From: Prevotellaceae bacterium
GTDB taxonomy: Bacteria > Bacteroidota > Bacteroidia > Bacteroidales > Bacteroidaceae
Length of the DNA: 42,499 bases
Assembly: GCA_021204865.1 (NCBI GenBank)
Contig: JAJPYQ010000065.1
Coordinates: forward strand, 3,792 to 46,290
Direction of reading: 5' to 3'
Below the pieces are notes generated by a model. The model did not search any database, had not been told where the DNA came from, and worked only from the letters and a program-made list of their open reading frames with translations. Of this stretch, positions 5,026 through 36,571 are shown in pieces (position 1 is the stretch's first letter; every line of letters begins with the position of its first letter). The position numbers and the translations under genes are program-made.

Positions 5026-5093
5026 GAACCCATTGCGAGGGGTTCAGTTGAACCCATTGCGAGGGGTTCACTTGAACCCCTCGCAATGGGTTG
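5026..5093. repeat. 24-bp palindromic tandem repeat, third unit inverted
   Basis: Units start at 5026, 5050 and 5074. Units 1 and 2 read GAACCCATTGCGAGGGGTTC plus a 4-nt linker (AGTT or ACTT). Unit 3 is the reverse complement of the same core (GAACCCCTCGCAATGGGTT). GAACCC/GGGTTC arms make each unit a hairpin, and units 2 and 3 together form a perfect 19-bp inverted repeat with an ACTT loop. It lies between rnhB and hipB and could end the long suf operon. Confidence 0.85.
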
Positions 5094-5096
5094 TCT

Positions 5097-5142
5097 GACG
5101 GGTAGCTGTGAGGGACCACGACGGGTAGCCGTGAGGCGTGAT
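5097..5142. repeat. Two 23-bp degenerate repeat units
   Basis: GACGGGTAGCTGTGAGGG (5097) recurs as GACGGGTAGCCGTGAGGC (5120), exactly 23 bp later and directly before the rnhB stop codon. Same period as the other arrays in this window. Confidence 0.6.
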
Positions 5143-5750
5143 TAAGCCAAGGGCAGGGTCATCTGCAAGCCTTCGCCAAGGAGGTTGAACGTCCTGCGGT
5201 GGTGCGGCGTGGGACCGTACAGCCGGATTGCCTCTCGGTGGGCGAGGGTGGGGTAGCCTTTGTTCACGTCCCAGTGATAAAGGGGGTACTGCTGGTGCAG
5301 CCGCTGCATATAGTCGTCTCGGTAAGTCTTGGCAAGGATGCTGGCGGCTGCGATGCTCTGGTACGTCGCGTCGCCCTTGACGACGGTCTCGTAGGGGATG
5401 TCCTCGTAGGGCAGGAAGCGGTTGCCGTCGATGAGCAGCAGCTGTGGGCGCAGGGTGAGACGGGCGATTGCCCGGTGCATTGCGAGGATGGAGGCGCGCA
5501 GGATGTTCAGGCGGTCTATCTCCTCGTTGCTCACCACGCCCACTGCCCAGCACAGCGCCTCACGCTCGATGACCTCCCTCAGCTGCCGCCTTTGATGGTC
5601 GGACAGCTGCTTGGAGTCGTTGAGACGCGGGTCGCTTATGCCTTGCCTAAGCACTACCGCTGCGGCGAAGACGGGACCTGCGAGGCAGCCACGCCCGGCC
5701 TCGTCGCAGCCCGCCTCGAGGAGCGTCTTGTCTTTGCAGGAAAGCAGCAT
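5142..5750 (-). CDS. rnhB: Ribonuclease HII
   Basis: 202 residues; cleaves the RNA strand of RNA-DNA hybrids and single ribonucleotides in DNA. The active site is visible: [13 protein letters not shown] near the start (Asp16, Glu17), NDSKQLS, LLIDGN and [21 protein letters not shown]. The start at 5750 ([21 protein letters not shown]) gives normal length. A longer in-frame reading to 5867 would run into sufS and adds an arginine/serine-rich stretch unlike the family. It follows sufS by 10 nt and is the last gene of the rimP-to-rnhB operon. Confidence 0.95.
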
Positions 5751-5760
5751 GGGGCGGGGC

Positions 5761-6984
5761 TTAGGCGAACATCTCCTGCACACGACGGATGGCGTCGGCG
5801 AGGCGGTCGACCTCCTCCCTTGTGTTGTAGAGAGCGAAGGAGGCTCGGCACGTCCCCTCCACGCCAAGCCTTCGCATAAGAGGCTCTGCGCAGTGATGAC
5901 CCGTGCGCACCGCTATGCCGAGGCGGTCAAGGAGGGTTCCCATGTCGAGGTGGTGTATGCCGCCCACTTGGAAGCTAAGCACCGCCTCCCTCTCCCGTGG
6001 CTTGCCGAATATCCGCAAGCCCTTTATCTCGCTGAGGCACTCCACGGCGTACTGCGTAAGGCTCTGCTCGTACTGCCTGATGGCTTCCATCCCTATGGAA
6101 GACACGTAGCGCAGGGCTGCCGCCAAGCCCGTTGAGGCGATGTAGTCAGGCGTGCCTGCCTCGAACTTGTAGGGCAGGTCGCTGAAGGTGGTGCGCTCGA
6201 ACGACACGCTCTTTATCATCTCCCCTCCGCCCATGTAAGGGGGCAGGCGGTCGAGCCACTCCTCCTTGCCGTAAAGCACGCCGATGCCCGTGGGACCGTA
6301 GACCTTGTGACCGCTCAGGGCGAAGAAGTCGCAGTCCATCTCCCTTACGTTGACGGGCAGGTGGGGCGAGCTTTGCGCCCCGTCCACCAGCACAGGCACG
6401 CCGTGCGAGTGGGCTATCCTTATTATCTCCGCTACGGGGTTGAGCGTGCCAAGCACATTGCTTACGTGGGTGACGGAGACGAGCTTCGTCTTGGGCGTGA
6501 ACATAGTCTCGAACACGTCCATGCGCAGCTCCCCACGCTCGTCGATGGGGATGGGGCGCAGGCGTATGTCCTTCCTCCTTTGCAGGAGCTGCCACGGCAC
6601 GATGTTGCTGTGATGCTCCATCTCCGAGAGGATTACCTCGTCGCCGTCCTCCATGCTCTCGTCACCGAAGCAGGAGGCGATGAGGTTGATGCTCTCCGTC
6701 GTGCCTCGGGTGAAGACTATCTCGCTTGCGCTCCTCGCACCAAGGAAGCGGCGCACCGCCTCGCGGCTCTCCTCGTGCAGGTCGGTTGCCCTCTGCGAGA
6801 GGAAGTGAACACCGCGGTGAACGTTAGCGTTGGCGTTGTAGTACTCATTCACCATCGCCTCCACCACCTGCCGGGGCTTCTGCGTGGTGGCGGCGTTGTC
6901 GAGGTAGACAAGGGGGTAGCGGTCGTATATCTTCCTCGAGAGGATGGGGAAGTCCGCCCTTATGGCTTCGATGTCGTAGCTCAT
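5761..6984 (-). CDS. sufS: SufS cysteine desulfurase
   Basis: 407 residues; PLP enzyme that takes sulfur from cysteine for Fe-S cluster assembly. The PLP lysine is Lys227 in [12 protein letters not shown], the reactive cysteine is Cys365 in RTGHHCAEP, and the [10 protein letters not shown] start and TRGTTESIN cofactor motif are present. The GHHC context marks the SufS (group II) type rather than IscS. The start at 6984 ([15 protein letters not shown]) is preferred over ATGs at 6990 and 6999 because it overlaps the sufD stop as ATGA. No SufE or SufU gene is found beside it in this window. Confidence 0.96.
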
Positions 6985-8324
6985 CTGCATACCTTGCACC
7001 CCTCGCAGTTACTAAGGCTTCCACGCATACGTGCCTCCGTGAGGTAGCGAAGGCGGTCGCGCAGAGGCTCAAGCCTTACGCTGTCTATCACCTCGCCCAC
7101 GAAGGCGTACTTAAGCAGCAGTCGAGCCTCCTCAAGGCTCACGCCCCTTTGGCGCATGTAGAAGAGGGCTGCCTCGTTCAGCTGCCCCACGGTGCTGCCG
7201 TGCGAGCACTTCACGTCGTCGGCGTATATCTCAAGCATAGGCTGCGAGAACATCCGCGCCGAGGGGGAGGCGCAAAGGTTGGCGTTCACCTCCCTCGACG
7301 ACGACTTCTGCGCGTCCTGCCTCACCAGCACCCTGCCTGCGAACGCCCCCACGGCCTCGCCGTCGAGCACGTACTTGTACAGCTCGTTGCTCTCGCACTG
7401 GGGCGAGCGGTGTTCGATGAGCGTGTTGTTGTCCACCCGCTGCTGCTTGTCCGCCACCACGCAGCCGTACATATTCACCGTCGAGCCTGCGCCCCTGAGC
7501 GACACGTCGGTGCGGTTGCGGGTCAAGCCGTTGTGCAATGTGATGCTGTCGAGGGTCACCTGAGCCTTCTCCCCAACATCCACGTACATATTGGCGAGGC
7601 GGTGGTTGAGGGAGTGCGTCTCCTCCAGCTCGTAAAGCTCAAGACTTGCTCTGTCTCCCACGAAGACCTCAGCCACCTGCGTCGTGAGGAACTGCCGCTC
7701 GTCGGCGGCGTGGTCGCAGAAGAGCAGCTGCGCCTGCGCCCCCTCCTCCATTACGATAAGCACACGGCGGTTCGCCATAAGGCTCACGTCCGCCCTAAGT
7801 ATGTTCACCACCTGCAAGGGGCGGCTCAGCGCCACGTTCTTAGGCACATAGACGAAGACCCCGTCCTGCGTGAGCATAGTGTTGAGGGCGTTGAGCGAGT
7901 CCTTGCGTGTGGGGGCAAGCCGTGCGTAGTGCCGCTCCACGAGTTCCCTATGCTCCTCTGCGGCCTTGGCGAGCGAGCATACCACCACCCCTTGGGGCAG
8001 CGGCTTGCTGTGCGTCACTTCAGGGCGGAACTCGTCGTTGATGACGAAGTAAAGGTAGGTGGATAGGGTAGGGACGCTGCAAGAGAAGGCTTTCCTCGGG
8101 TCGATGGGTATGGCGAGGCGGCTGAGGTTAAGCCCGTAGTCGGGCTTCAGCACCTGCTCCACGTCGGTGTAGCGGTAGCGTTCCACCTTCAGCGAGGGTA
8201 TGCCCAGCCTTTTGAAGTCTCTGAACGCTTCCTCGCGGGGGGCGTTGAGGGCAGAGGGCGAATGCAGGGCTATCGTGTCCCTGTTCTGCTCGTAGAGGGT
8301 GATGTATTGCTCCGCTGCGCCCAT
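6981..8324 (-). CDS. sufD: SufD, Fe-S scaffold subunit
   Basis: 447 residues, within the usual range. SufD pairs with SufB in the SufBC2D complex that builds Fe-S clusters. The C-terminal beta-helix carries the family segments SSREVNANLCASP and DVKCSHGSTVGQL with the conserved histidine, then LNEAALFYMRQRG. It lies 2 nt after sufC and overlaps sufS by 4 nt. The C-terminus ends CEGCKVCR, three cysteines in a short space. Confidence 0.95.
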   Translation of the reverse strand: MGAAEQYITLYEQNRDTIALHSPSALNAPREEAFRDFKRLGIPSLKVERYRYTDVEQVLKPDYGLNLSRLAIPIDPRKAFSCSVPTLSTYLYFVINDEFRPEVTHSKPLPQGVVVCSLAKAAEEHRELVERHYARLAPTRKDSLNALNTMLTQDGVFVYVPKNVALSRPLQVVNILRADVSLMANRRVLIVMEEGAQAQLLFCDHAADERQFLTTQVAEVFVGDRASLELYELEETHSLNHRLANMYVDVGEKAQVTLDSITLHNGLTRNRTDVSLRGAGSTVNMYGCVVADKQQRVDNNTLIEHRSPQCESNELYKYVLDGEAVGAFAGRVLVRQDAQKSSSREVNANLCASPSARMFSQPMLEIYADDVKCSHGSTVGQLNEAALFYMRQRGVSLEEARLLLKYAFVGEVIDSVRLEPLRDRLRYLTEARMRGSLSNCEGCKVCR

Positions 8325-8326
8325 CG

Positions 8327-9073
8327 TTACGCCTCCTTGCGTATCCAGTCGAAGCCTCGGCTCTCTATCTCAAGCGCAAGCTCAGGACCGCCTGTCTTCA
8401 CTATCCTTCCGTCTATCAGCACGTGCACCACGTGGGGGCGTATGTAGTCAAGCAGCCTCTGGTAGTGCGTTATGACCAAGGCGCTCGACGTGGGCTTCCA
8501 CAGCTTGTTAAAGCCCTCAGCCACGATGCGCAGAGCGTCCACGTCAAGCCCTGAGTCCGTCTCGTCGAGGATGGTGAACTTAGGCTCAAGCATAGCCATC
8601 TGGAATATCTCGTTGCGCTTCTTCTCGCCGCCAGAGAAGCCCTCGTTAACGCTGCGCCCCGTCAGCTTGCTGTCCATCGACACAAGCGCCCTCTTCTCCC
8701 TCATCAGGCGCAGGAACTCGCTGCCCGTCATCGGCTCGAGCCCCTCGTGCTTGCGCTTGGCGTTCACAGCCGCGCGCATGAAGTTGACCATCGACACGCC
8801 GGGTATCTCCACAGGCTGCTGGAAGGAGAGGAAGATGCCCCTCAGCGAACGCTCCTCAGCCGAGAGCGAGAGCAAGTCCTCCCCGTCGTAAAGTATCTCT
8901 CCCTCCGTCACGCTGTAGGAGGGATGCCCCACGATGATGTTGCTAAGGGTGGACTTTCCCGCTCCGTTCTGCCCCATCAGGGCGTGTATCTCCCCGTCAC
9001 GGATGGTGAGCGATATGCCCTTCAGTATCTCCTTGCCAGCGATGCCAGCGTGCAAGTTCCTTATCTCTAACAT
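8327..9073 (-). CDS. sufC: SufC, ABC-type ATPase of the Fe-S assembly complex
   Basis: 248 residues, a soluble ABC ATPase without a membrane domain. Walker A is GQNGAGKST (about 34-42), the signature is the SufC-specific FSGGEKKRNEI, and Walker B is FTILDETDSGLD. ATP binding by SufC drives the shape change of SufB-SufD needed for cluster formation. Spacing is 2 nt to both sufB and sufD, so the subunits are surely co-translated from one message. Confidence 0.97.
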   Translation of the reverse strand: MLEIRNLHAGIAGKEILKGISLTIRDGEIHALMGQNGAGKSTLSNIIVGHPSYSVTEGEILYDGEDLLSLSAEERSLRGIFLSFQQPVEIPGVSMVNFMRAAVNAKRKHEGLEPMTGSEFLRLMREKRALVSMDSKLTGRSVNEGFSGGEKKRNEIFQMAMLEPKFTILDETDSGLDVDALRIVAEGFNKLWKPTSSALVITHYQRLLDYIRPHVVHVLIDGRIVKTGGPELALEIESRGFDWIRKEA

Positions 9074-9075
9074 GG

Positions 9076-10530
9076 TTATCCTACTGTTCCTTCAAGTGAT
9101 ACTCCCAACAACTTCTGCGCCTCAACAGCGAACTCCATGGGCAGCTTGTTAAGCACGTCCTTGGCGTAGCCGTTAACGATAAGCCCAACCGCGTCCTCCG
9201 TGCCTATGCCCCGCTGGTTGCAGTAGAACAGTTGGTCCTCGCTTATCTTGCTTGTGGTGGCTTCGTGCTCCACTATCGCCGTGTTGTTCTGCACGTCCAT
9301 ATAAGGGAAGGTGTGAGCGCCGCACCTGTTGCCAAGCAACAAGCTGTCGCACGAGGAGTAGTTGCGCGCGTTGTCAGCCGTCCTTGCCACCCTTACCAGC
9401 CCCCTGTACGAGTTCTCGCTCTCTCCCGCGCTTATGCCCTTGCTGATGATGGTGCTGCGTGTGTTCTTGCCCAGGTGTATCATCTTGGTGCCAGTGTCCG
9501 CCTGCTGATGGTGGTTGGTCACAGCCACGCTGTAGAACTCCGCCTGCGAGTTGTCGCCCTTAAGCACGCAGCTTGGGTACTTCCACGTCACTGCGCTGCC
9601 AGTCTCCACCTGCGTCCACGAAAGCCTGCTGTTATTGCCTGCCAGCAGCCCGCGCTTCGTCACAAGGTTAAGCACTCCGCCCTTGCCCTCGCTGTCGCCA
9701 GGGTACCAGTTCTGCACGGTGGAGTATTTCACCTCGGCATCCTCCATCACGGCTATCTCCACCACAGCGGCGTGAAGCTGGTTCTCGTCCCTCATAGGTG
9801 CGGTGCAGCCCTCAAGGTAAGACACGTAGCCTCCCTTGTCGCACACAATGAGCGTGCGCTCGAACTGCCCCGTGCCCCGCGCGTTAATGCGGAAGTAGGT
9901 GGAAAGCTCCATGGGGCAGCGCACGCCCTCAGGTATGTACACGAACGAGCCGTCGCTGAACACCGCCGAGTTGAGGGCGGCGAAGTAGTTGTCCCTGTAG
10001 GGCACCACGCTGCCGAGATACCGGCGCACGAGTTCGGGGTGGCTCTTCACCGCCTCGCTTATGGAGCAGAAGATGATGCCTTTCTCCCGCAGCTTATCAC
10101 GGAAGGTGGTCTTCACCGACACCGAGTCCATGACTGCGTCCACCGCCGTGCCGCTCAGCGCCATACGCTCCTCAAGCGGGATGCCAAGCTTGTCGAAGGT
10201 CTTCATCAGCTCGGGGTCTATCTCCCCCTTGTCTGTCTTCTTCGTGGCGGTGGGGTCGGCATAGTAGGATATGGCTTGGTAGTCTATCTCCGGCAGCCTC
10301 AGATGCCCCCACGTGGGCTGCCTCTGACTTGTCCAGTGGCGGAACGCCTTAAGGCGGAAGTCGAGCAGCCACTCAGGCTCGCCCTTCTTCTCCGAGATAA
10401 GGCGCACCACAGCCTCCGACAAGCCTTTCTCTATGATGTCGGTCTCAACGTCGGTGGTGAAGCCGTACTCATATTTCTTAGCCGCCACCTCACGCACGTA
10501 TTCATTCCCTATGCCAGCAGTCTCTCCCAT
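9076..10530 (-). CDS. sufB: SufB, Fe-S scaffold subunit
   Basis: 484 residues, standard length. Family segments include [25 protein letters not shown], the invariant YLEGCTAP and [22 protein letters not shown]; the cysteine in SSCDS lies in the conserved C-terminal part. SufB is the main scaffold on which the cluster forms. The start codon lies inside a 40-bp segment (10511-10550) that is a near copy of the cvpA 3' end, so the present N-terminus MGETAGIG may derive from a duplicated gene junction (see the island at 10511-10924). Confidence 0.96.
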
Positions 10531-10622
10531 TCCTTTATATAATCGGTTAAGTTGTTGGCGTTAGCAAGCCCCGAAGGGTTCCTTAGCTTGCAGGTTGCTA
10601 AGGCAAGCCCCGAAGGGGTTCT

Positions 10623-10829
10623 CAGCCGCTCCTCTTCGCGACAACGTTCGTGCAAACGAGAGCAAACGAGCTTGCTCGATTTGCCGAGTGCAGCCGAACC
10701 TCGCCGAAGGCCACCAGCCGCTCCTTTTCGCGACAACCAGCCGCTCCTTCTTTCAAGAACCAGCCGCTCCTCTTTGCGACAACCAGCCGCTCCTTCTTGT
10801 AAGAACCAGCCGCTCCTCTTCGCGACAAC
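10623..10829. repeat. 23-bp tandem repeat array (CAGCCGCTCC family)
   Basis: One lone unit at 10623-10645 and five contiguous units at 10715, 10738, 10761, 10784 and 10807 (to 10829), each 23 bp and starting CAGCCGCTCCT. The second half alternates between TTCGCGACAAC or TTTGCGACAAC and TTCTTTCAAGAAC or TTCTTGTAAGAAC; the last two contain TTCTT/AAGAA hairpin arms with different centres. The same family recurs at 36480-36571. Confidence 0.9.
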
Positions 10830-10831
10830 CA

Positions 10832-10874
10832 GTTGAAACCCACGGCTATCCCTCTTGAACCCCTTCGGGGTTAT
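10832..10874. repeat. REP-like palindromic element, intergenic copy
   Basis: Reads GTTGAAACCCACGGCTATCC, then CTCTTGAACCCCTTCGGGGT ending in TATAAC. The second part folds as AACCCC-TTC-GGGGTT. The same two blocks, in this order, occur inside infB (13852-13898, 13735-13775) and, diverged, in recG (31107-31166) and at 72-133. Confidence 0.8.
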
Positions 10875-10882
10875 AACTTCGC

Positions 10883-11245
10883 TTATGGCAGCAGGCTCTT
10901 CCATTCCTTTATATAATCGGTTAATAACAGTATGAAGCCTATCAGCAGTCCGTACTTCACGCAGCCCACCACAGCGCCCAGCAGCCTGTTAAGCGTGCCG
11001 ATGAGGAAGATGGAGTTCAGCACAACGGAAACCAAGGAGGCCACGAAACCCAAGACGATAGGCACTGCCACGCAGAAGAGAAGCGTCCACCAAGTGTTGA
11101 GGTTGTATTTGTCGTGAAGATACCACGCCGCCACGCAACCAACGACGAAGCCTACCGTAGAGCACAGCTCCTTCACCAGTCCGTTCCTCCAGCCGCTGAC
11201 CAACCCGTAAAGCAACACCAAAGCGCATACAACCTCCACCCACAT
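10883..11245 (-). CDS. cvpA: CvpA family membrane protein
   Basis: 120 residues with four hydrophobic segments (about 5-25, 28-48, 57-80, 84-110), as in CvpA, an inner-membrane protein linked to colicin V production and envelope stress whose molecular role is not settled. The GLVSGWRNGLVKELCS start and the NRLLGAVVGCVKYGLLIG last segment are family-like. It is shorter than the 160-180 residues I expect and ends soon after the last membrane segment, just where the repeat island begins. It follows infB by 12 nt. Confidence 0.8.
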   Translation of the reverse strand: MWVEVVCALVLLYGLVSGWRNGLVKELCSTVGFVVGCVAAWYLHDKYNLNTWWTLLFCVAVPIVLGFVASLVSVVLNSIFLIGTLNRLLGAVVGCVKYGLLIGFILLLTDYIKEWKSLLP

Positions 11246-11257
11246 AGGGAAGCGTCC

Positions 11258-14149: not shown

Positions 14150-14159
14150 AGTCCAATCT

Positions 14160-15419: not shown

Positions 15420-15431
15420 TGCATTTATATG

Positions 15432-15899: not shown

Positions 15900-15922
15900 A
15901 TCTGTCCGTCTGTTAAAAACGC

Positions 15923-17930: not shown

Positions 17931-18004
17931 GCTTCAGTAGCTCAGTTGGTTAGAGCACATGACTGTTAATCATGGGGTCGTTGGTTCAAGCCCATCCTGA
18001 AGCG
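17931..18004 (+). tRNA. tRNA-Asn (anticodon GTT)
   Basis: 74 nt. The acceptor stem GCTTCAG / CTGAAGC pairs perfectly, with discriminator G. The D arm is GCTCAGTTGGTTAGAGC, the anticodon stem CATGA / TCATG encloses CTGTTAA with anticodon GTT, and the T loop is TTCAAGC. The T stem GTTGG / CCATC has one T-T mismatch. CCA is not encoded. No integrated element is found at its 3' end, only a terminator and a repeat array. Confidence 0.95.
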
Positions 18005-18072: not shown

Positions 18073-18264
18073 AAAGGTCAGTAGTGACCTTCTGCGAAAG
18101 GGTTGTAGAACCCCTTCGGCAAAGGGTTGTAGAGGCCTACCGCGAAAGAGGTGTAGACCCCTTTCCCTAAAGGGGTGTAGACCTCTTTCCTCAAAGGGGT
18201 GTAGACCCCTTTCCCTAAAGGGGTGTAGACCTCTTTCCTCAAAGGGGTGTAGAGGCCTTTCGCG
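18073..18264. repeat. Eight-unit 24-bp palindromic tandem array
   Basis: Units start every 24 bp from 18073 to 18241, with a partial ninth after 18264. Typical unit: AAAGGGGTGTAGACCCCTTT plus a 4-nt tail (CCCT, CCTC, GGC or CGCG type). Most units fold on themselves, for example AAAGGGG/CCCCTTT, and the first has different but still matching arms (AAGGTCA/TGACCTT). The same family, as its reverse complement, is at 36360-36479. It fills the gap between the tRNA terminator and the 3' end of the leftward glycosidase. Confidence 0.92.
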
Positions 18265-18292
18265 AAGGGTCAGTAGAGGGTGGGGTAAGGGC

Positions 18293-24380: not shown

Positions 24381-24518
24381 GAATCGTTCCGACGGACCGA
24401 CTTGAATCGCTCCGACGGACCGACTTGAATCGCTCCGACGGACCGACTTGAATCGCTCCGACGGACCGACTCCAATCGCTCCGACGGACCGACCCCAATC
24501 GCTCCGACGGACCGATTC
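24381..24518. repeat. Six-unit 23-bp tandem array (GAATCGCTCCGACGGACCGA family)
   Basis: Units start at 24381, 24404, 24427, 24450, 24473 and 24496; they differ at only a few sites, mainly the last two and first bases. Each holds an imperfect palindrome TCGxTCCG-A-CGGAxCGA. It lies in the 387-bp gap between the divergent antiporter and asd genes. The flank TTGCGCCTGTATAAGAG (about 24359-24375) is nearly repeated before the array at 5026 (TTGCGCCTGTATACGAG, about 5001-5017). Confidence 0.93.
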
Positions 24519-25652: not shown

Positions 25653-25676
25653 GCCCCCGAGACCTTCGCCAAGCCT

Positions 25677-28231: not shown

Positions 28232-28261
28232 AATGTGGCTTTCTTACGTGCGATTGAGCTG

Positions 28262-28269
28262 CAAATATA
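28262..28269 (-). promoter_or_regulatory. -7 box of nadK
   Basis: Minus strand TATATTTG, an exact match, 30 bp before the nadK start. Confidence 0.65.
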
Positions 28270-28319
28270 TAATAAAAAGGTGAAGACACGGTTGCTGAGA
28301 AGGAAAAAGCATTGAAGTG

Positions 28320-28350
28320 TTGCTTTTCTAAGGTATTTGTCGTATATTTG
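28320..28350 (+). promoter_or_regulatory. Strong rightward promoter with no nearby gene
   Basis: TTG at 28320-28322, a 20-bp spacer and TATATTTG at 28343-28350. The next start codon of a recognisable gene (pdxJ) is 400 bp further on, across a repeat array. Confidence 0.55.
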
Positions 28351-28356
28351 CGGTGT

Positions 28357-28708
28357 GCTTGGGTGCATTGCGCTGAAGCGTTATGACTTAAATTGAGCTT
28401 GAAAAGGGGTGTGTGACACCTAATTAGGAATCGGTCGACACCTAATTAGGAATCGACCGACACCTAATTAGGAATCGGGTGACACCTAACTATGTGTCGC
28501 CCGACTCGCAGCGTTCGTTAAGCTCACACGCAGCGTTGTGTCGGGCTGAAGACCTATAGTGTGTAAGCCTTAACGCAACGGTGCGATCAGCTGAAGCTAT
28601 ATGGCCGTCTGGCAAACGTCAACGTCGCGTCGCCATCACCCAAGCCATCTTCCGACGCTCTCGCCCATAACAAAAAGGCGAGGCCAAGGGGCGGGGTGAG
28701 CGTTTTTT
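28357..28708 (+). ncRNA. Possible noncoding transcript or long pdxJ leader
   Basis: Inferred from a promoter at 28320-28350 and a possible terminator at 28655-28708: outer stem ACGCTC (28655-28660) with GAGCGT (28698-28703), inner stem CTCGCC / GGCGAG (28660-28665 and 28677-28682, sharing one base with the outer stem) and a six-T run at 28703-28708. It would include the 22-bp palindromic array. I find no open frame of note in it and no match to a known riboswitch. A weak -7 box for pdxJ (TAAATTCG, 28712-28719) lies just after the possible terminator. Confidence 0.25.
28415..28502. repeat. Four-unit 22-bp palindromic tandem array
   Basis: Units at 28415, 28437, 28459 and 28481. The first three are GACACCTAATTAGGAATCG plus 3 variable bases (GTC, ACC, GGT); the fourth has diverged (CCTAACTATG). 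CCTAATTAGG is a perfect palindrome. The variable ends form further palindromes across the joints (GGTCGACA, GGTGACACC). Confidence 0.9.
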
Positions 28709-28750
28709 GCCTAAATTCGCGGTGAACGACAGGCATAACACATTAAGAAT

Positions 28751-29464: not shown

Positions 29465-30018
29465 TTTACATTTTCTTGGCCAATGGCTTCGAGGAGGTCG
29501 AGGCACTGGCGCCGCTCGACATCCTTAGGCGTGCTGGTGTCGAGGCGCAACTGGTGAGCATAACTAACGAGACTGTGGTGCGTGGAGCGCACGGTGTAGG
29601 CGTGACGGTAGACACAGTGCTCCCTGACGCCGACCTTACAGGGGCTGACATGCTCGTGCTGCCCGGCGGGCTGCCCGGGGCAACCAACCTCGACGCTTGC
29701 GAACCGCTTCGCAAAGCCCTCGTGAAGCAGGTCGAGGCGGGAGGGATGGTTGCTGCCATCTGCGCCGCCCCGTTGGTTCTCGGGCATCTCGGCTTATTGA
29801 AGGGGAAGAAAGCGACGTGCTACCCGGGCTTCGAGACCGAGCTCGAGGGGGCTGACTACACTGCCTCGCTCGTTGAGCGTGACGGGCAGATAATAACAGG
29901 CAAAGGACCCGGGGCAGCCTTCGAGTTTGGCTACACCATCCTCGCCGCCTTGGGGATTGACGCCGAGCCGCTGCGCGAGGGGATGATGTACAATTTCCTG
30001 ATGAGCACTGCCAGCTGA
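29461..30018 (+). CDS. DJ-1/PfpI family protein
   Basis: 185 residues, one DJ-1/PfpI domain. The reactive cysteine is Cys101 in [12 protein letters not shown], with Glu residues early ([18 protein letters not shown]) and the GGLPGATNL turn. This is the DJ-1/YajL/ThiJ subgroup, linked to protection of proteins and nucleotides from carbonyl or oxidative damage; the exact reaction in this group is debated. It overlaps pdxJ by 4 nt and precedes ispD by 27 nt. Confidence 0.9.
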
Positions 30019-30045
30019 ACCAGCCGCCATAGACGTTAGGGGACT

Positions 30046-30696
30046 ATGGCACGACACGCTATAATTGTAGCCGCGGGCAAGGGCGAGCGGATGGGCGCTC
30101 CTGTGCCGAAGCAGTTCATCGACGTTGCGGGGAAGCCCCTGCTAATGCGCACCGTGGAGGCGTTCCGACGGGCGGACGAGGGCATCAACATTGTCCTTGT
30201 CCTGCCCGAAGCGTACCTTGAGCATTGGCAGAAGCTTTGCAACGTCCGTGCGGTCTGTGGCGCTGCGACGCGCTTCCACTCCGTGTTGAACGGCTTGTCG
30301 CTTATCGACGACACGGAGGACGGGCTCTTGGCAGTGCACGATGGCGTTCGCCCCTTCGCCTCCACTGAGCTGATACGCCGCTGCTTCAGTGCTGCGGAGA
30401 GGGAGGGAACGGCAGTGCCGGTGGTGCCCGTGGTTGAGTCGATGCGACGGATAAGGGCGGACGGCTCGGAGACGATTGACCGCCGGGCCTATCGCCTTGT
30501 GCAGACCCCGCAGGTGTTCCGCTTGAGCCTGCTCCGGGAGGCGTATCGTCAGCCCTACAATGCACGCTTCACCGACGACGCGACAGTGGTGGAGGCGCTG
30601 GGGCGCAAGGTGTGCCTCGTTGAGGGCGAACGTAATAATATAAAGGTGACAACGCCTGACGACCTGGCCTTCGCAGAGTACTTATGCCGTCGATAG
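30046..30696 (+). CDS. ispD: 2-C-methyl-D-erythritol 4-phosphate cytidylyltransferase
   Basis: 216 residues; third step of the MEP isoprenoid pathway (CTP + MEP to CDP-ME). The nucleotide-binding start IIVAAGKGERMGAPVPKQF, VHDGVRPF and ALGRKVCLVEGERNNIKVTTPDDL are family hallmarks. It overlaps recG by 13 nt, so the two are translated together. Confidence 0.96.
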   Translation: MARHAIIVAAGKGERMGAPVPKQFIDVAGKPLLMRTVEAFRRADEGINIVLVLPEAYLEHWQKLCNVRAVCGAATRFHSVLNGLSLIDDTEDGLLAVHDGVRPFASTELIRRCFSAAEREGTAVPVVPVVESMRRIRADGSETIDRRAYRLVQTPQVFRLSLLREAYRQPYNARFTDDATVVEALGRKVCLVEGERNNIKVTTPDDLAFAEYLCRR

Positions 30697-32825
30697 ACCT
30701 TGGCGCGCACATCACCTTCCTTGCGGGAGTGGGGAAGCAGAGGGCGAAGCTCCTGCACGACTTTATGCAAATCACCACCATCGGCGACTTGCTTACCTAC
30801 TTCCCCTTCAAGCACATCGACCGCAGCCGCCTTTACACGGTGACGGAGCTTACGGCGGACATGCCCTTCGTGCAGCTGCGAGGGGAGATACTCAGCTTCA
30901 GCGAGGAGGGGGAGGGACGGAAGCGCAGGCTCGTCGCTCACTTCACCGACGGGCAGGGGCTTGTTGACCTCGTGTGGTTCAACGGGCTTGCGTACATTCG
31001 GAGGCTCTATAAGGAGCACACGCCGTACATTGTCTTCGGGCGGCCGAGCCTGTACAAGGACAGGTTTAGCATAATGCACCCCGACGTTGACCCTGCCGAC
31101 AGCGAACCGTGGGTAAGCTTCGCCAAACCCACGGCTATCCCACCGAAACCCCTCCAGAGTTTTTTGATGCAGCCGTACTACAGCGTGCCTGAGAAGGCGA
31201 AGAAGCGGGGGCTTACCTCGAGGTTCATCAGCCTGCTCGTCTCCGACTTGTTGCGCCAGCTCACCGAGCCGCTGCCTGAGACCTTGCCCCCATACCTCGT
31301 ATCACAGATGAGCCTGATGCCGCGTGACGAGGCTCTGAGGACAATGCACTTCCCCCCGAGCAGCGAGGCGCTGACGAGAGCGTCGTACCGCCTTAAGTTC
31401 GAGGAGCTGTTCTACATCCAGCTAAGCATCCTGCGCTATGCGAGAGACAGGCGGGGGCGGTTCAAGGGAATGCCCTGCAAGCGCATCGGAGGTCGCTTCA
31501 ACTCGTTCTACTACGAGCGGCTGCCCTTCGCGATGACTGGGGCGCAGAAGAGGGTAGTCAAGGAGATGTGGGAGGACATGCGCTCGGGCAGGCAGATGAA
31601 CCGCTTGCTGCAAGGCGACGTTGGCAGTGGCAAGACGCTTGTGGCACTGATGCTGATGCTCATCGCCATCGACAACGGCTTGCAGGCTTGCATTATGGCT
31701 CCCACGGAGATACTTGCCTCGCAGCACCTCGAGACGTTCCGCTCCATGCTCGGCGAGCTGCCCGTGAGGGTGGAGCTGCTCACCTCGTCGGTGAAGGGGA
31801 AGCGTCGCAGAGAGACGCTCGAAGGCTTGGCGAAGGGTGATGTGAACATTCTCGTCGGCACGCACGCAGTAATCGAGGACCCCGTTGAGTTCCTTAGGCT
31901 TGGGCTTGCCGTCATTGACGAGCAGCACCGCTTCGGCGTGGCGCAGAGGGCGAGGCTTTGGCGCAAGACGGACACGCCGCCTCACGTGCTGGTGATGACC
32001 GCCACGCCCATCCCCCGAACGCTTGCGATGACGCTCTACGGCGACCTCGACGTGTCGGTGATTGACGAGCTGCCCCCGGGCAGGAAGCCAGTGGTGACGG
32101 TGCATCAGCGCAACGAGCACCGTGCCGACCTCTACGAGGGGATGCGTCGCCAGCTTGCCCTCGGGAGGCAGATATACGTGGTGTTCCCGCTCATAAAGGA
32201 AAGCGAGAAGATGGACTTGCGCAACCTCGAGGACGGCTTCGAGAGGCTGCGGCAGGTCTTTCCCAACGTAGCCGTCGGCAAGGTGCACGGCAGGATGAAG
32301 CCCGCCGACAAGGACGAGGAGATGCGGCGCTTCGCACGGGGGGAGACGCGCATTCTCGTTTCGACGACGGTGATTGAGGTTGGGGTGAACGTGCCTAACG
32401 CGAGCGTGATGGTGATAGAGAACGCCGAGCGCTTCGGCCTGGCGCAGTTGCACCAGCTCAGGGGCAGGGTAGGCAGGGGTGCCGACCAGTCGTACTGCGT
32501 GCTTGTCACCAACGACCGTCTCTCCCGCGAGCAGCGTAAGCGCATGGCGATAATGACTGAGACGACGGACGGCTTCGTGATAGCGGAGGAGGACATGAAG
32601 CTGCGTGGGCCCGGCGACATGGAGGGGACGCAGCAGAGCGGCATGCCTTTCGAGCTAAGGGTCGCCAATCTTGCGAGGGACGGGCAGATAGTGCAGCTGG
32701 CCAGGGACACCGCTACGCAGGTGCTTGACGACGATAAGACATGCGACGCCCCCCGCAACGCAGTGCTTTGGCAACACCTAAGGGAGCTGCGCCAGCAAAC
32801 GCCCGACTGGTCCGCCATCTCGTAG
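30684..32825 (+). CDS. recG: ATP-dependent DNA helicase RecG
   Basis: 713 residues; remodels stalled replication forks and branched recombination intermediates. The wedge domain covers about 1-200, Walker A is LLQGDVGSGKTLVAL, the DEAH-type box reads VIDEQHRFGVAQR, and the C-terminal helicase motifs (TTVIEVGVNVPNAS, LHQLRGRVGRG) and FELRVANL are intact. Residues about 141-161 (EPWVSFAKPTAIPPKPLQS) interrupt the usual run from the HPD/E motif to QPYYS(T/V)xEK and correspond to a REP-like repeat at 31107-31166; total length is about 15 residues more than I expect for the order. Confidence 0.95.
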   Translation: MPSIDLGAHITFLAGVGKQRAKLLHDFMQITTIGDLLTYFPFKHIDRSRLYTVTELTADMPFVQLRGEILSFSEEGEGRKRRLVAHFTDGQGLVDLVWFNGLAYIRRLYKEHTPYIVFGRPSLYKDRFSIMHPDVDPADSEPWVSFAKPTAIPPKPLQSFLMQPYYSVPEKAKKRGLTSRFISLLVSDLLRQLTEPLPETLPPYLVSQMSLMPRDEALRTMHFPPSSEALTRASYRLKFEELFYIQLSILRYARDRRGRFKGMPCKRIGGRFNSFYYERLPFAMTGAQKRVVKEMWEDMRSGRQMNRLLQGDVGSGKTLVALMLMLIAIDNGLQACIMAPTEILASQHLETFRSMLGELPVRVELLTSSVKGKRRRETLEGLAKGDVNILVGTHAVIEDPVEFLRLGLAVIDEQHRFGVAQRARLWRKTDTPPHVLVMTATPIPRTLAMTLYGDLDVSVIDELPPGRKPVVTVHQRNEHRADLYEGMRRQLALGRQIYVVFPLIKESEKMDLRNLEDGFERLRQVFPNVAVGKVHGRMKPADKDEEMRRFARGETRILVSTTVIEVGVNVPNASVMVIENAERFGLAQLHQLRGRVGRGADQSYCVLVTNDRLSREQRKRMAIMTETTDGFVIAEEDMKLRGPGDMEGTQQSGMPFELRVANLARDGQIVQLARDTATQVLDDDKTCDAPRNAVLWQHLRELRQQTPDWSAIS
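31107..31166. repeat. REP-like palindromic element inside recG
   Basis: CCGTGGGT (31107-31114) pairs with ACCCACGG (31127-31134); then CTATCCC, ACCGAAACCCCTCC and AGAGTTTTTTGATGC. The order and the final T-run are closest to the copies at the left window end (CTATCCCTCTGAAG ... CCTCCGGCACTTTTTGAAGC). It is in frame and encodes about 20 residues of RecG. Orientation relative to the coding strand is opposite to that in infB. Confidence 0.75.
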
Positions 32826-32827
32826 CC

Positions 32828-32942
32828 GAACATCCTTGGCAACTCGTTCGCCTGACATCTTCCAACTTGTCCGACGAACATCTTCCAACTCGTTCGCCTG
32901 ACATCTTCCAACTTGTTCGCCTGACATCTTCCAACTCGTAGG
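32828..32942. repeat. Five-unit 23-bp tandem array (CCTGACATCTTCCAACTCGT family)
   Basis: Units at 32828, 32851, 32874, 32897 and 32920, exactly 23 bp each; the first is most diverged. CGAAC at unit starts and GTTCG at unit ends can pair. Begins 3 bp after the recG stop. Confidence 0.93.
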
Positions 32943-33019
32943 GCTACGCTTTGCGGTCCCTCGTACGACCCTTTTCTGAAAAAGTCAACTGGTAGTATTC
33001 TTTTTAGGCAACTATTCCC

Positions 33020-33027
33020 TACCTTTG
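33020..33027 (+). promoter_or_regulatory. -7 box of the higBA-like locus
   Basis: TACCTTTG, an exact match, 8 bp before the candidate toxin start, so the transcript would have almost no leader. Confidence 0.5.
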
Positions 33028-33034
33028 CAACGCA

Positions 33035-33386
33035 ATGTGCATGAGGGCTTTCGAGTTATTGATACTGCGTGAGGCAGCAGACTTCCTTGGAAGCTTGCCG
33101 CCTTCAGTTATGGACAAGGTCTACTACAATATCCACAGGATTGCGTCTGGGGAGCGTAACGCTGAGCTGTTCAAAGAAGATAAGCGGCAGTGAGATATGG
33201 GAGTTCCGCACTAAGTACGACAAGATGACATACCGCCTGTTCGCTTTCTGGGATAAGGAGTGAAAGACCTTGGTGGTGGCAACGCATGGGATGATAAAGA
33301 AGACCCAGAAGACTCCATTAGGCGAGATAGCGAAGGCGGAAAGGATGAGAAAGGAATATTTCGAAGATAAGAAGAAAGGAGATTGA
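33035..33386 (+). pseudogene. Broken HigB/Gp49-type toxin
   Basis: The sequence reads FELLILREAADFLGSLPPS...NAELF in one frame up to about 33172, then continues one frame over as SGSEIWEFRTKYDKMTYRLF and AFWDKE, meets a TGA at 33261-33263, and goes on in the same frame as KTLVVATHGMIKKTQKTP to a stop at 33384-33386. These parts in order make a complete RelE-superfamily (phage Gp49-like, HigB) toxin of about 115 residues. Removing one A from the AAA at 33173-33175 restores the first join (LFKKISGSEIW). So there are two lesions: a one-base insertion and an in-frame stop. The downstream antitoxin is intact. Confidence 0.85.
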
Positions 33387-33387
33387 G

Positions 33388-33729
33388 ATGAAGAGAGTAG
33401 GACGATTTGAGGCGTACACCTTAGACGAGTGCCTCGATATGCATTTGGGAGAGAAAGGAACGACGAGGCGCGATGAGCACGAACGCAGTGTAGAGGCTGC
33501 CTTGGATGCCTACAGGGTTGGCGAGGCGGTAAGGAGCATACGCAAGCAGCGAAACCTGACACAGGAGGAGCTTGGAAAGAGGATCGGTGTCAACAAAGCC
33601 CAAATATCGAAGCTGGAGAGAGGGGCAAGCATAACTCTTTCGACAATGAGCAGAGTGTTCAAGGCTTTGGGAGCGGCGAGTGCCACTTTGGACTTGGGAG
33701 GCGATATGGGAAAGGTGGCTTTGTGGTAG
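33388..33729 (+). CDS. HigA-like XRE antitoxin
   Basis: 113 residues. The helix-turn-helix is in the C-terminal half (about 54-105: RKQRNLTQEELGKRIGVNKA, then QISKLERG). The N-terminal 50 residues would contact a toxin. It starts 1 nt after the toxin reading frame ends, the HigB-first order. With the toxin broken it may now act only as a repressor or be left behind by drift. Confidence 0.85.
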   Translation: MKRVGRFEAYTLDECLDMHLGEKGTTRRDEHERSVEAALDAYRVGEAVRSIRKQRNLTQEELGKRIGVNKAQISKLERGASITLSTMSRVFKALGAASATLDLGGDMGKVALW

Positions 33730-33744
33730 ATTGTATGTCAAGCA

Positions 33745-33777
33745 TTGGGCGAGGCACGAGGTTTTTCACTAACTTTG
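33745..33777 (+). promoter_or_regulatory. Promoter of the phosphofructokinase gene
   Basis: TTG at 33745-33747, a 22-bp spacer and TAACTTTG at 33770-33777, 45 bp before the ATG. Confidence 0.6.
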
Positions 33778-33821
33778 TGCGCTACCAAGGAGTATCATTT
33801 CACACTTAAACGATAAAGACT

Positions 33822-35471
33822 ATGGAAAAGAGTGCATTGCAAGTGGCAAGGGCTGCTTATCAGCCGAAGGTGCCCCGTGTGCTGAAGGGCGCAGTCGAGG
33901 CTAAGGAGGGCGCGCCTACTGAGAGCGTGGGCAACCAGAAAGAGATCAGGGAGCTGTTCCCCAACACCTACGGTATGCCCGTGGTGGAGTTCGTCGCTTC
34001 CGACGAGAAGCAGGCTAAGCCCGTCAACGTGGGCGTGATACTGTCGGGCGGACAAGCGCCGGGCGGGCACAACGTCATCAGCGGCTTGTTCGACGGCGTC
34101 AAGTCGCTCTCAAAGGAGAGCAAGCTCTACGGCTTCCTCATGGGACCCGGCGGCTTGGTCGACCACAAGTATATGGAGATAACCGACGAGCTGATAGACG
34201 AGTACCGCAACACTGGAGGCTTCGACATCATCGGCTCGGGGCGCACGAAGCTGGAGAAGGTGGAGCAGTTCGAGAAGGGCATTGAGATACTGCGCAAGCT
34301 CGGCATCACCGCCCTCGTCATCATCGGGGGAGACGACTCGAACACGAACGCCTGCGTCTTGGCAGAGTACTACGCCGCCAAGAAGTACGGCGTGCAGGTC
34401 ATCGGCTGCCCGAAGACCATCGACGGCGACCTCAAGAACGAGCAGATAGAGACCTCGTTCGGCTTCGACACCGCCTGCAAGACCTACAGCGAGCTGATAG
34501 GCAACATACAGCGTGACTGCAACAGCTCCCGCAAGTACTGGCACTTCATCAAGGTGATGGGCCGCTCTGCCTCGCACATCGCCCTCGAGTGCGCCCTTCA
34601 GACGCAGCCTAATGTCTGCCTCGTCTCCGAGGAGGTGGAGGCGAAGCAGATGACCCTCGACGACGTGGTCACCTACATAGCCACGGCTGTAGCCAACCGA
34701 GCCCTTGACGGCAACAACTTCGGCACGGTGGTCATCCCCGAAGGCATAATAGAGTTCATCCCCGCCATCAAGAAGCTTATCGCCCAGCTCAACGAGGTGC
34801 TCACCGACCCGTCGACGGGCGAGCCTCGTGCCTTCGCCAGCGCCGACGAGCAGATAGCCTTCGTTAAGGGCAGCATCGAACAGGACAACCTTGCCGTGCT
34901 CGAGTCCTTGCCCTCGGACGTGGCACGGCAGCTTTGCCTCGACCGTGACCCTCACGGCAACGTGCAGGTGTCGCTCATCGAGACGGAGAAGCTGCTCTCC
35001 CGTATGGTGGACACGAAGCTCAAGCAGTGGAAGAAGGAGGGCAAGTTCGTGGGCAAGTTCAGCGCACAGCACCACTTCTTCGGCTACGAGGGTCGCTGCG
35101 CAGCTCCGTCGAACTACGACGCTGACTACTGCTACAGCCTCGGCTTCAACGCGAGCCGCCTCATAGCAAGCGGCAAGACGGGCTACATGAGCATCATCAA
35201 GAACACCACCGCGCCGGCCGAGCAGTGGGTGCCGGGAGGCGTTCCCATCACGATGATGATGAACATCGAGCGCAGGAACGGGGCGAACAAGCCCGTCATC
35301 CGCAAGGCTCTCGTGGAGCTCGACGGTGCGCCCTTCAAGTACTTCGCAAGCCACCGAGACGTGTGGGCAAGGCAGACCTCGTACGTCTACCCGGGTCCGA
35401 TACAGTACTTCGGCCCCTCGGAGGTGTGCGACCAGTGCACCAAGACCTTGGCTTTAGAGCAAGCTAAGTAG
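33822..35471 (+). CDS. Pyrophosphate-dependent 6-phosphofructokinase
   Basis: 549 residues, the long PFP type. Makes fructose 1,6-bisphosphate from fructose 6-phosphate with pyrophosphate in place of ATP, reversibly. The marker is GGDDSNT (169-175), where an Asp stands in for the Gly of ATP enzymes, together with Lys198 in [21 protein letters not shown] at the start, [19 protein letters not shown] and [15 protein letters not shown] are family segments. The following lysozyme gene begins 6 nt after its stop. Confidence 0.95.
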
Positions 35472-35477
35472 CTCTGA

Positions 35478-36347
35478 ATGCCGACCAAGCAGGCAACGAC
35501 AAGGAGACGGAAGACAAGCCCAAGCCCCGGGCGCAAGCGCAAGCGCAAGAGCGGCGCATCGCTGCTGAGAGGCTTCCCCTGGTGGGGAGTGCTTGCGGGA
35601 AGCCTCCTTGTCGTTGCCGTTTACGTCGCCTTGCTCTACCACTTCTTCGTCGGCCCGCTCTCCTTCCGCTGGCGAGCCCTCTACGGCGAGCCCGACTACC
35701 CGCAGGAGTACGACGTGCGTGGCATCGACATAAGCCACTACCAGAAGGACATCGACTGGGAGGTGCTGCGCAACGCCAAGGTGGGCGGGCGGCCCCTTCG
35801 CTTCGTCATCGTGAAGGCTACCGAAGGTTTGACGATGACGGACGAGAACTTCAACGACAACTTCTACCGCGTCCGCGAGAACGACCTCATCCGAGGGGCG
35901 TACCACTTCTACATCCCCGGCAGCGACCCCCGCGGGCAGGCGGAGTTCTACCTCAGGCAGGTGCACCTTGAGCCGGGCGACCTGCCTCCCATCCTCGACA
36001 TAGAGCGAAGGGGAGACGAGCCGCTGGAGCAGTTCCAGGCGGGCGTGAGGCGCTGGCTTGAGATAGTAGAGGCAGTCTACGAGACCGCCCCCGTCATCTA
36101 CACCAACCTCGACTTCCGCCGCAAGTACCTCAGCGACCCCGCCTTCGACCGCTATCCCCTCTGGATAGCGAACTACTACAAGCGCAAGCTCACCTACGAG
36201 GGGGAGTGGGCGCTCTGGCAGTACACCGACCTCGGCAGCCTGCCCGGCGTCAAGCACAAGGTGGACTTCGACCTCTTCAACGGCAGCCTCCAGGACCTTC
36301 GCGGCTTCCTGCTGCCGGGCGAGACAGGGCTTGACATGATAGACTGA
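35478..36347 (+). CDS. GH25 lysozyme, membrane-anchored
   Basis: 289 residues. The N-terminus is strongly basic (TTRRRKTSPSPGRKRKRK), followed by one membrane span (about 34-55, WWGVLAGSLLVVAVYVALLY), so it is anchored with the enzyme outside the inner membrane. The GH25 domain runs about 80-280: GIDISHYQKDIDW, FVIVKATEG, GAYHFYIP, catalytic DIE in PPILDIE (Asp174, Glu176), and WQYTD near the end. It cleaves the beta-1,4 bond of peptidoglycan. Why it is paired with a glycolytic gene is unknown; the 6-nt gap suggests shared transcription. Confidence 0.92.
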   Translation: MPTKQATTRRRKTSPSPGRKRKRKSGASLLRGFPWWGVLAGSLLVVAVYVALLYHFFVGPLSFRWRALYGEPDYPQEYDVRGIDISHYQKDIDWEVLRNAKVGGRPLRFVIVKATEGLTMTDENFNDNFYRVRENDLIRGAYHFYIPGSDPRGQAEFYLRQVHLEPGDLPPILDIERRGDEPLEQFQAGVRRWLEIVEAVYETAPVIYTNLDFRRKYLSDPAFDRYPLWIANYYKRKLTYEGEWALWQYTDLGSLPGVKHKVDFDLFNGSLQDLRGFLLPGETGLDMID

Positions 36348-36359
36348 CACAGACCTTAG

Positions 36360-36479
36360 AGACCTCTCTACAGGCCCTTCGCAAAAGGGTTCTACACCCC
36401 TTCAGTCAAAGGGTTCTACACCTCTTCGGTCAAAGAGGTCTACACCTCTTCGGTCAAAGAGGTCTACACTCTCATCGCG
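36360..36479. repeat. Five-unit 24-bp palindromic tandem array
   Basis: Units start at 36360, 36384, 36408, 36432 and 36456. Typical unit AAAGAGGTCTACACCTCTTC plus GGTC; AAGAGGT-CTAC-ACCTCTT is a perfect 7-bp hairpin. It is the reverse complement of the family at 18073-18264. It runs without a gap into the 23-bp array at 36480. Confidence 0.9.
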
Positions 36480-36571
36480 ACAACCAGCCGCTCCTCTTCG
36501 CGACAACCAGCCGCTCCTCATCGCGACAACCAGCCGCTCCTCATCGCGACAGCCAGCCGCTCCTTTTCGCG
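36480..36571. repeat. Four-unit 23-bp tandem array (same family as 10623-10829)
   Basis: Units at 36480, 36503, 36526 and 36549, ACAACCAGCCGCTCCTCTTC plus GCG, with CTC(A/T)TCGCG or CTTTTCGCG ends. The last 24-bp unit before it also ends TCATCGCG, so the two arrays share a boundary sequence. The rest of the gap up to the promoter at 36675 (about 100 bp) shows nothing I can name. Confidence 0.9.

What the first reader, a model, noticed from the sequence alone, without database searches (positions are those of the whole stretch)
5026..36571. Family of 22-24 bp tandem arrays filling intergenic gaps
At least seven gaps contain head-to-tail units of 22, 23 or 24 bp (5026-5093, 10715-10829, 18073-18264, 24381-24518, 28415-28502, 32828-32942, 36360-36571). 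The sequences mostly differ between gaps, but the period stays within 22-24 bp, near two helical turns, and all lie between genes. Ordinary slippage would be expected to give varied periods. A shared process (a templated copying activity, a DNA-bending protein, or a RAYT-like enzyme) would explain a fixed size with free sequence. I know of no described bacterial element with this behaviour, but I cannot search for one.
Basis: partly seen in the sequence, partly recalled or inferred. Interest (0 to 1): 0.75.

Follow-up and report, generated by a model that had tools for sequence, protein, structure and literature searches.

The report
Lineage-locked 22–24-bp intergenic repeat arrays
In this uncultured bacterium and a number of its relatives, the gaps between genes carry small head-to-tail repeats whose sequence changes freely while their length stays near 22–24 letters, a pattern close to one described in Porphyromonas but broader and still unexplained.

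Summary
The seven places carry 22-, 23- or 24-bp arrays. In a 778-kb sample of the genome, biased towards contigs holding one family, 127 of 173 tandem arrays have periods 22–24; a shuffled control gave 3 arrays, none in that range. In stretches of 20 genomes of the genus 59 of 169 arrays are exactly 22 bp, against 0 of 45 in 68 more distant Bacteroidota loci. The larger sequence families each keep one length (38 of 38 arrays, 16 of 16, 10 of 10). With detected arrays masked, array-bearing gaps still beat at 23 here (z 6.0) and at 22 in relatives (z 3.8); array-free gaps do not. Arrays favour convergent gaps (29 of 51) over divergent ones (8 of 48), and seven of eight window arrays fold as rods. 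RAYT, reverse transcriptase, DDE_Tnp_1 and Cas1 do not track them. Best reading: module-built, non-coding elements that work like BIMEs or BrickBuilt, copied in whole-module steps under a spacing constraint. What sets the length is unknown; a fixed-step enzyme is not excluded.

The parts
5026..5093 (.). Family C array, 24 bp: two direct units, then an inverted unit; folds as one hairpin
   Evidence: (RNA z -10.2 and -12.2)
5000..5025 (.). Degenerate outer module left of the family C core; a similar module to the right (about 5094-5145) runs in inverted orientation (by eye)
   Evidence: flanks of C and F cores autocorrelate at lag 23 (0.476 against about 0.25, 38 flanks)
10713..10832 (.). Family B array, 23 bp with alternating units (46-bp higher-order repeat), between a SufBD-family gene and a Colicin_V family gene
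18081..18278 (.). 24-bp array (AAAGGGG TGTAGA CCCCTTT + spacer; 48-bp alternation), downstream of a tRNA
24381..24515 (.). Family A array, 23 bp x 5.9; absent from the orthologous gap of the closest sampled relative (G069)
   Evidence: 49 places in this genome; 1 of 61 genus genomes
28415..28502 (.). Family E array, 22 bp, between an NAD kinase gene and pdxJ (divergent); in five relatives the matching stretch is 16-212 bp and has no 22-24-bp array
32827..32939 (.). 23-bp array just after recG, joined to cluster A by single linkage; two relatives carry 22-bp arrays of other sequence at the same place
36367..36470 (.). 24-bp array resembling the one at 18081 (by eye)
36471..36573 (.). Family B array, 23 bp, directly abutting the 24-bp array

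Best explanation
These are lineage-specific, non-coding, module-built intergenic elements. Each is a stack of 22-24-bp modules, a part of them palindromic, sometimes framed by more degenerate modules in inverted orientation. Shown: length is far more stable than sequence within families, between species and beyond the detectable arrays; arrays prefer convergent gaps and are rarer in divergent ones; at four comparable places relatives lack the array. Inferred: modules multiply by whole-module copying errors between neighbours (slippage, unequal exchange, hairpin-assisted template switching), and blocks are copied between gaps; insertions that spoil promoters are lost; a partner reading about two turns of helix (a protein on DNA, or one on the rod-like RNA these gaps would give if transcribed past gene ends; 22 bp is two A-form turns, recalled) keeps the length while sequence drifts. 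They would work like REP/BIME or BrickBuilt elements: 3'-end hairpins that tune termination or mRNA decay, mostly near-neutral.
For: Period: 127 of 173 arrays at 22-24; 59 of 169 at exactly 22 in stretches of 20 genus genomes against 0 of 45 in 68 distant loci. 22 is the strongest intergenic lag of 5-60 in 8 of the 18 genomes G001-G018. Large families keep exact length: 38/38, 16/16, 10/10, 8/8, 7/7, 6/6. Length outlives sequence: lag 23 in masked array-bearing gaps z 6.0, lag 22 in relatives z 3.8, no such peak in array-free gaps or distant loci; flanks of C and F cores match themselves at lag 23 in 48% of positions. A drifting 22-bp consensus is shared by G005, G008 and G012, many unit pairs at 68-82%. 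Placement: convergent 29/51, codirectional 32/113, divergent 8/48; convergent against divergent p 6e-5; relatives 22/101, 21/232, 12/132. Flanks in inverted relation, p 1e-5 (98 arrays). Palindromic consensus in 22 of 69 own and 12 of 36 relatives' arrays at p<0.05. Folding z -3.3 to -12.2 on both strands for seven of eight window arrays.
Against: No partner protein was found and no transcription data exist. Periods 23 and 24 are not whole turns of B-DNA or A-RNA. Two thirds of units show no significant palindrome, and the array at 32827 folds hardly better than shuffles (z -1.3, -1.4). Permuting unit order does not change folding (31 own arrays, mean z -0.04), so no selection on whole-array shape is seen. 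Pairing columns covary in G (0.70 against 0.55 random), weakly in C and D, not in A (0.590 against 0.585) and run against pairing in F (0.33 against 0.51). Own families are hardly more alike than shuffled units (0.487 against 0.479), so common descent of all families is not shown. Inside codirectional gaps of the first sample arrays are not nearer the 3' end (median 107 bp) than the next start (110 bp; 15 arrays). Several genus genomes show no 22-24 peak in what was sampled.
Confidence: 0.45

Rival explanations
1. A dedicated, undescribed activity makes duplications with a fixed step (for example a nuclease, polymerase or integrase that copies or duplicates about two helical turns), seeding arrays from any sequence; the step length is a heritable property of the lineage.
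For: Size is fixed while sequence is free in many families; exact 22 in several species; the preferred period seems to differ by lineage: 22-24 here and in G069, 7 in G050 (7 of 12 arrays), 11 then 22 in G006. Arrays at places where relatives have none.
Against: No candidate tried tracks the arrays: Y1, reverse transcriptase, DDE_Tnp_1, Cas1. The PolA 5'-exonuclease domain is present in 31 of 31 genomes. Multi-locus families imply copying of existing modules rather than fresh seeding.
Confidence: 0.2
2. Neutral founder effect: an ancestral 22-bp minisatellite spread through the gaps; slippage copies whole units, so length is inherited without any constraint, and divergent gaps lose arrays because promoters are hurt.
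For: Drifting shared 22-bp consensus in three species; whole-unit higher-order repeats of 46, 48 and 72 bp; promoter-poor placement; absence at matching places in relatives.
Against: Unrelated families within one genome show little residual similarity, yet their lengths stay at 22-24. Flanking modules that match at under 50% still keep a lag of 23, where unconstrained indels should have blurred the phase.
Confidence: 0.2
3. They are non-autonomous transposons of the BrickBuilt type: leader, minisatellite and tail with terminal inverted repeats, moved by a resident IS5-type transposase.
For: Similar outer modules in inverted orientation around C and F cores; dispersal to many gaps; places empty in relatives.
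Against: The published BrickBuilt end GAGACCTTTGCA is not enriched in the window (2 matches, 3.7 expected). No DDE_Tnp_1 match in this genome or in array-bearing G005, G008, G012, G016, G018, though G013 and G017 have some. No target-site duplication could be defined. A shared unique leader or tail was not seen.
Confidence: 0.1
4. REP/RAYT system: the modules are REPs spread by a Y1 transposase.
For: Two Y1 genes in the genome; palindromic modules; REP-like preference for convergent and codirectional gaps (PMC3733652 passages); two 22-bp arrays lie near one Y1 gene.
Against: Y1 has no match in several array-bearing relatives. The Y1 genes here sit beside a separate GTAG-tagged palindrome; GTAGCCG(A/T)GGGTT has 17 exact matches in the sample. 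The arrays are head-to-tail at a fixed short step.
Confidence: 0.05

Closest known systems
BrickBuilt, 23-nt minisatellite MITE of Porphyromonas gingivalis (PMC4596501; abstract and sections 5, 7 part 1 of 2, 8, 9, 13 read)
   Same: Order Bacteroidales (for the window inferred from named relatives); 23-nt head-to-tail units; always intergenic; non-identical copies at many loci; flanking leader and tail; predicted long stem-loops; some sites empty in other strains. The paper also cites 22- and 41-nt repeats in strain W83.
   Different: BrickBuilt is one sequence family with 19 copies and IS5-like 12-bp ends. Here there are many clusters of unrelated sequence (42 among 132 arrays), about 16 arrays per 100 kb of a biased sample, no such ends in the window, and a period shared by species with mostly unrelated units.
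REP / BIME palindromic repeats (PMC3733652: start of abstract and 12 passages seen)
   Same: Short palindromic intergenic modules, dispersed, mostly in convergent and unidirectional gaps, likely in transcripts.
   Different: REPs carry a GTAG or CGTC tag, and GTAG ones often a RAYT gene. This genome has such REPs separately. The arrays are head-to-tail stacks with a locked period.
Cyanobacterial heptamer tandem repeats (STRR; recalled, not read)
   Same: Fixed unit length with several sequences, intergenic.
   Different: Unit is 7 bp. Heptamer arrays do occur in some relatives of this genome (G050, G007, G003, G018, G005, G016).

Membership tests
BrickBuilt MITE | 23-nt tandem unit without spacers, intergenic | tested here: met
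   unit lengths 22 and 24 occur too, and 49 of 127 arrays overlap ORF calls or stretch ends
BrickBuilt MITE | Shared leader and tail segments around the array | tested here: inconclusive
   125 of 225 flanks match another flank against 17 of 129 truly array-free gaps, but the shared parts seen are further 23-bp modules, mainly around C and F cores
BrickBuilt MITE | Terminal inverted repeat like GAGACCTTTGCA | tested here: not met
   2 matches at up to 2 mismatches, 3.7 expected; window only
BrickBuilt MITE | IS5-type transposase that could move it | tested here: not met
   0 DDE_Tnp_1 (PF01609) matches in G000; genome 89% complete; other transposase families not searched
BrickBuilt MITE | Target-site duplication at filled sites | not testable with these tools
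   closest relative found is about 75% identical in the clp gene at 39833-42415, flanks too diverged
REP/BIME with RAYT | GTAG or CGTC tag at one end of the palindrome | tested here: inconclusive
   by eye on the unit lists: GTAG and CGTC occur in some units but inside them; no systematic test
REP/BIME with RAYT | Y1 (RAYT) transposase in genomes that carry the repeats | tested here: not met
   no match in G005, G008, G012, G016, G018; genomes 80-92% complete
REP/BIME with RAYT | Preference for convergent and unidirectional gaps | tested here: met
   29/51 convergent, 32/113 codirectional, 8/48 divergent; relatives 22/101, 21/232, 12/132; codirectional is not significantly above divergent (p 0.16)
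CRISPR array | Repeats separated by unique spacers; cas1 | tested here: not met
   units abut; no Cas1 match in G000, G005, G008, though G003 and G011 have one
Retron or other reverse-transcriptase product | Reverse transcriptase in array-bearing genomes | tested here: not met
   no match in G005, G008, G013, G016, G017; one in G000

The most novel reading that the evidence does not exclude
The lineage carries a previously undescribed activity with a built-in ruler of about two helical turns that duplicates or copies intergenic DNA in fixed 22-24-bp steps whatever its sequence, and the ruler length is itself a heritable, switchable trait of the lineage (22 in many members of the genus, 23 with 22 and 24 here and in its closest sampled relative, 7 or 11 in others).
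Probability: 0.2. Interest if true: 0.9.

Novelty: new variant of a known kind. Interest (0 to 1): 0.6.

Why it matters
Tandem repeats are normally thought of as sequence families whose lengths vary from locus to locus. Here length is the conserved character and sequence is the free one, in much of a genus and even in degenerate flanks. That turns an old curiosity (BrickBuilt in P. gingivalis, heptamers in cyanobacteria) into a comparative system in which one can ask what sets a repeat's period. It also warns that assemblies of such genomes break at these arrays: 7 of 23 contig ends checked fall within 60 bp of one, on contigs partly chosen for carrying family A.

Tried and rejected
Whole-element mirror symmetry: after seeing rod-like folds I proposed that arrays are kept as long hairpins; permuting unit order gave no effect (31 own arrays, mean z -0.04, p 0.81; 8 in relatives, mean z -0.08), so it was dropped. 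Compensatory pairing as a general rule: present in G, weak in C and D, absent in A, against pairing in F (the first attempt, used wrong pair offsets for G and E). A vocabulary of recurring hexamer arms in the outer modules: a genome-wide regular expression found 432 matches against 426 in shuffled sequence, so the claim is not made; only the anchored flank test is used. Known RNA families in the window: only a tRNA at 17931-18004. Loss of the PolA 5'-exonuclease as cause: domain present in 31 of 31 genomes. Enzyme candidates Y1, reverse transcriptase, DDE_Tnp_1, Cas1: no association seen (Cas1 was looked for in only 12 genomes of the genus). A shared CGTGAA motif in units of 7 species: the best of 200 shuffles reaches 6, so marginal. 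Matching places in relatives: most of its 80 rows look like chance translated matches; I kept four by eye (window 24381; L026 7892 with 8048; L167 10955, these three against G069; window 28415 against five relatives), and aligned only the first. Against them, G005 and G018 carry 22-bp arrays after recG, as this genome does (3 of 28 distinct loci). An earlier gap count (27/51, 27/113, 8/48) turned out to cover only the 14 multi-locus families; it was redone with all 127 arrays, and its control group had included gaps with singleton arrays, also redone.

Literature: (open-access library only; two searches returned nothing). None of the listings showed a description of a genus-wide locked period; that is not proof of absence. 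PMC5677150 was seen as 12 passages; PMC7202029 and PMC8604942 only as starts of abstracts in a listing.
Full report
WHAT IS THERE. The window lies in an 89%-complete assembly of 2.34 Mb in 96 contigs; its genes (SufBD family, infB, nusA, recG, pdxJ, cytochrome bd, a ClpC-like gene) and named recG relatives point to Bacteroidales. The units can be read directly: for example ATCGCTCCGACGGACCGACTTGA (23) at 24406, CACCTAATTAGGAATCGGTCGA (22) at 28417, GACCCCTTTCCCTAAAGGGGTGTA (24) at 18156. Two arrays with different units and lengths abut at 36.36-36.57 kb.

GENOME-WIDE. In 777,993 bases including the window there are 173 arrays at score 50 or more: 23 at 22 bp, 74 at 23, 30 at 24, 9 at 21, and 37 spread over 18 other periods. 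Shuffling gave 3 arrays, none at 22-24. Many of these contigs were chosen because family A had been found on them, which inflates density; without the window 119 of 142 arrays of period 8-60 are 22-24. At 70% single linkage, 132 arrays of 21-25 bp fall into 42 clusters, 28 of them singletons; the large ones each keep one length (A 38/38 at 23, G 16/16 at 23, C 10/10 at 24, F 8/8 at 24, H 7/7 at 22, B 6/6 at 23). Family A DNA matched in 1 of 61 genus genomes, this one.

GENUS-WIDE. The first stretches of relatives were taken around recG and other hits of the recG search; later ones were arbitrary parts of genomes that had so far shown few arrays or several, and of the two nearest relatives. In 1.67 Mb from 20 genomes of the genus there are 169 arrays of period 8-60: 59 at exactly 22, 14 at 21, 6 at 23, 8 at 24. 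In 1.22 Mb from 68 more distant Bacteroidota loci there are 45 arrays, none at 22 and 4 at 22-24; in 11 nearer named loci 4 of 10 are 22. Among G001-G018, lag 22 is the strongest intergenic lag of 5-60 in G005, G008, G011, G012, G013, G016, G017 and G018; it is second in G003 (after 7) and G006 (after 11) and third in G015; G010 peaks at 24, G002 at 23, G004 at 23 but very weakly, G007 at 7; G001, G009 and G014 show no 22-24 peak; samples are small, 7 kb for G009. The nearest relative found, G069 (75% DNA identity in the clp gene), has 3 arrays at 22, 3 at 23 and 1 at 24 of 15; one of the seven units reaches 0.74 to a family-G unit of this genome, the other six 0.59-0.65. The next, G050, has 7 of 12 at 7 bp. 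So a preferred period seems to belong to a lineage, not to a sequence.

LENGTH OUTLIVES SEQUENCE. Units in G005, G008 and G012 share a drifting consensus, many pairs at 68-82% identity, with period 22. Outward flanks of C and F cores, only partly called as arrays, match themselves at lag 23 in 47.6% of positions against about 25% at other lags (38 flanks). With detected arrays masked, array-bearing gaps still show lag 23 (z 6.0, this genome) and lag 22 (z 3.8, relatives); array-free gaps and distant Bacteroidota show no such peak. Families within this genome are hardly more alike than shuffled units (mean 0.487 against 0.479).

ANATOMY. Many units read as arm, spacer, inverted arm, spacer; 22 of 69 own and 12 of 36 relatives' consensus units are more palindromic than shuffled ones at p<0.05. 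Left and right flanks of an array tend to be inverted copies (score 8.55 against 7.27 shuffled, p 1e-5; direct 7.86, p 0.02; 98 arrays), clearest in C, F and G. Seven of eight window arrays fold far better than dinucleotide shuffles on both strands (z -3.3 to -12.2); the one at 32827 does not (-1.3, -1.4). Unit order does not matter for folding and pairing columns covary only in some families, so structure may be a by-product of palindromic units.

PLACEMENT AND TURNOVER. Of gaps of 80 bp or more, 29 of 51 convergent, 32 of 113 codirectional and 8 of 48 divergent hold a 22-24-bp array (convergent against divergent p 6e-5, against codirectional p 0.0008; codirectional against divergent p 0.16). 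Relatives show 22/101, 21/232 and 12/132 for 21-24 bp. Gene calls are by ORF length only, and 49 of 127 arrays overlap ORF calls or stretch ends. At four comparable places relatives have a much shorter stretch between conserved parts and no 22-24-bp array (24381, L026 and L167 against G069; 28415 against five relatives; matched by eye). After recG, G005 and G018 carry 22-bp arrays of other sequence.

WHAT MIGHT MAKE THEM. Y1 transposase, reverse transcriptase and DDE_Tnp_1 are each without a match in five or more array-bearing genomes, and Cas1 in G000, G005 and G008 while G003 and G011 have it (assemblies 80-92% complete, so single absences mean little, joint ones more). PolA's 5'-exonuclease domain is present in 31 of 31. 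I favour whole-module copying plus a spacing constraint of about two turns, at 0.45; neutral inheritance of length and a fixed-step activity each get 0.2.

COMPARISON WITH THE KNOWN. BrickBuilt (PMC4596501) is the nearest: 23-nt, intergenic, 19 copies, in the same order. Its end sequence was not enriched in the window and no DDE_Tnp_1 transposase was found in this genome. REPs share the gap preference (PMC3733652, passages), and this genome has true-looking GTAG REPs beside its Y1 genes, separate from the arrays. I therefore file the arrays as a new variant of intergenic palindromic minisatellites, not as members of either family.

Noticed in passing
window 31126-31190 (recG), 13863 (infB), 10837, 69; L010, L017, L150 and others: A separate interspersed palindrome, GTAGCCGTGGGTT...AACCCACGGCTA(T/C), 30 matches (up to 2 substitutions of AACCCACGGCTATCC) in the 778-kb sample, 20 of them inside called ORFs (some ORF calls may be spurious). 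In recG it coincides with a 14-residue surplus over six relatives, so it looks like a GTAG-tagged REP that can sit in frame inside genes.
   Followed up: partly
L149 14657-15101 and L150 2458-2953 (G000 contig C24): Two Y1 transposase genes that look like RAYTs, with GTAG-tagged palindromes beside them by eye; two 22-bp arrays also lie near the first (L149 14510 and 15528).
   Followed up: partly
G050, G007, G003, G018 stretches; L031, L037, L038: Other members of the genus and nearer named loci carry arrays of 7, 14 or 11 bp; in L031 both 7- and 11-bp arrays follow recG.
   Followed up: partly
contig ends of G000 (L013, L021, L027, L028, L164, L168): 7 of 23 contig ends checked lie within 60 bp of a 21-25-bp array, so true array lengths are probably underestimated; contigs were partly chosen for carrying family A.
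   Followed up: yes
window 3323-4902: HipA-like kinase gene with an upstream helix-turn-helix gene, a probable toxin-antitoxin pair.
   Followed up: no
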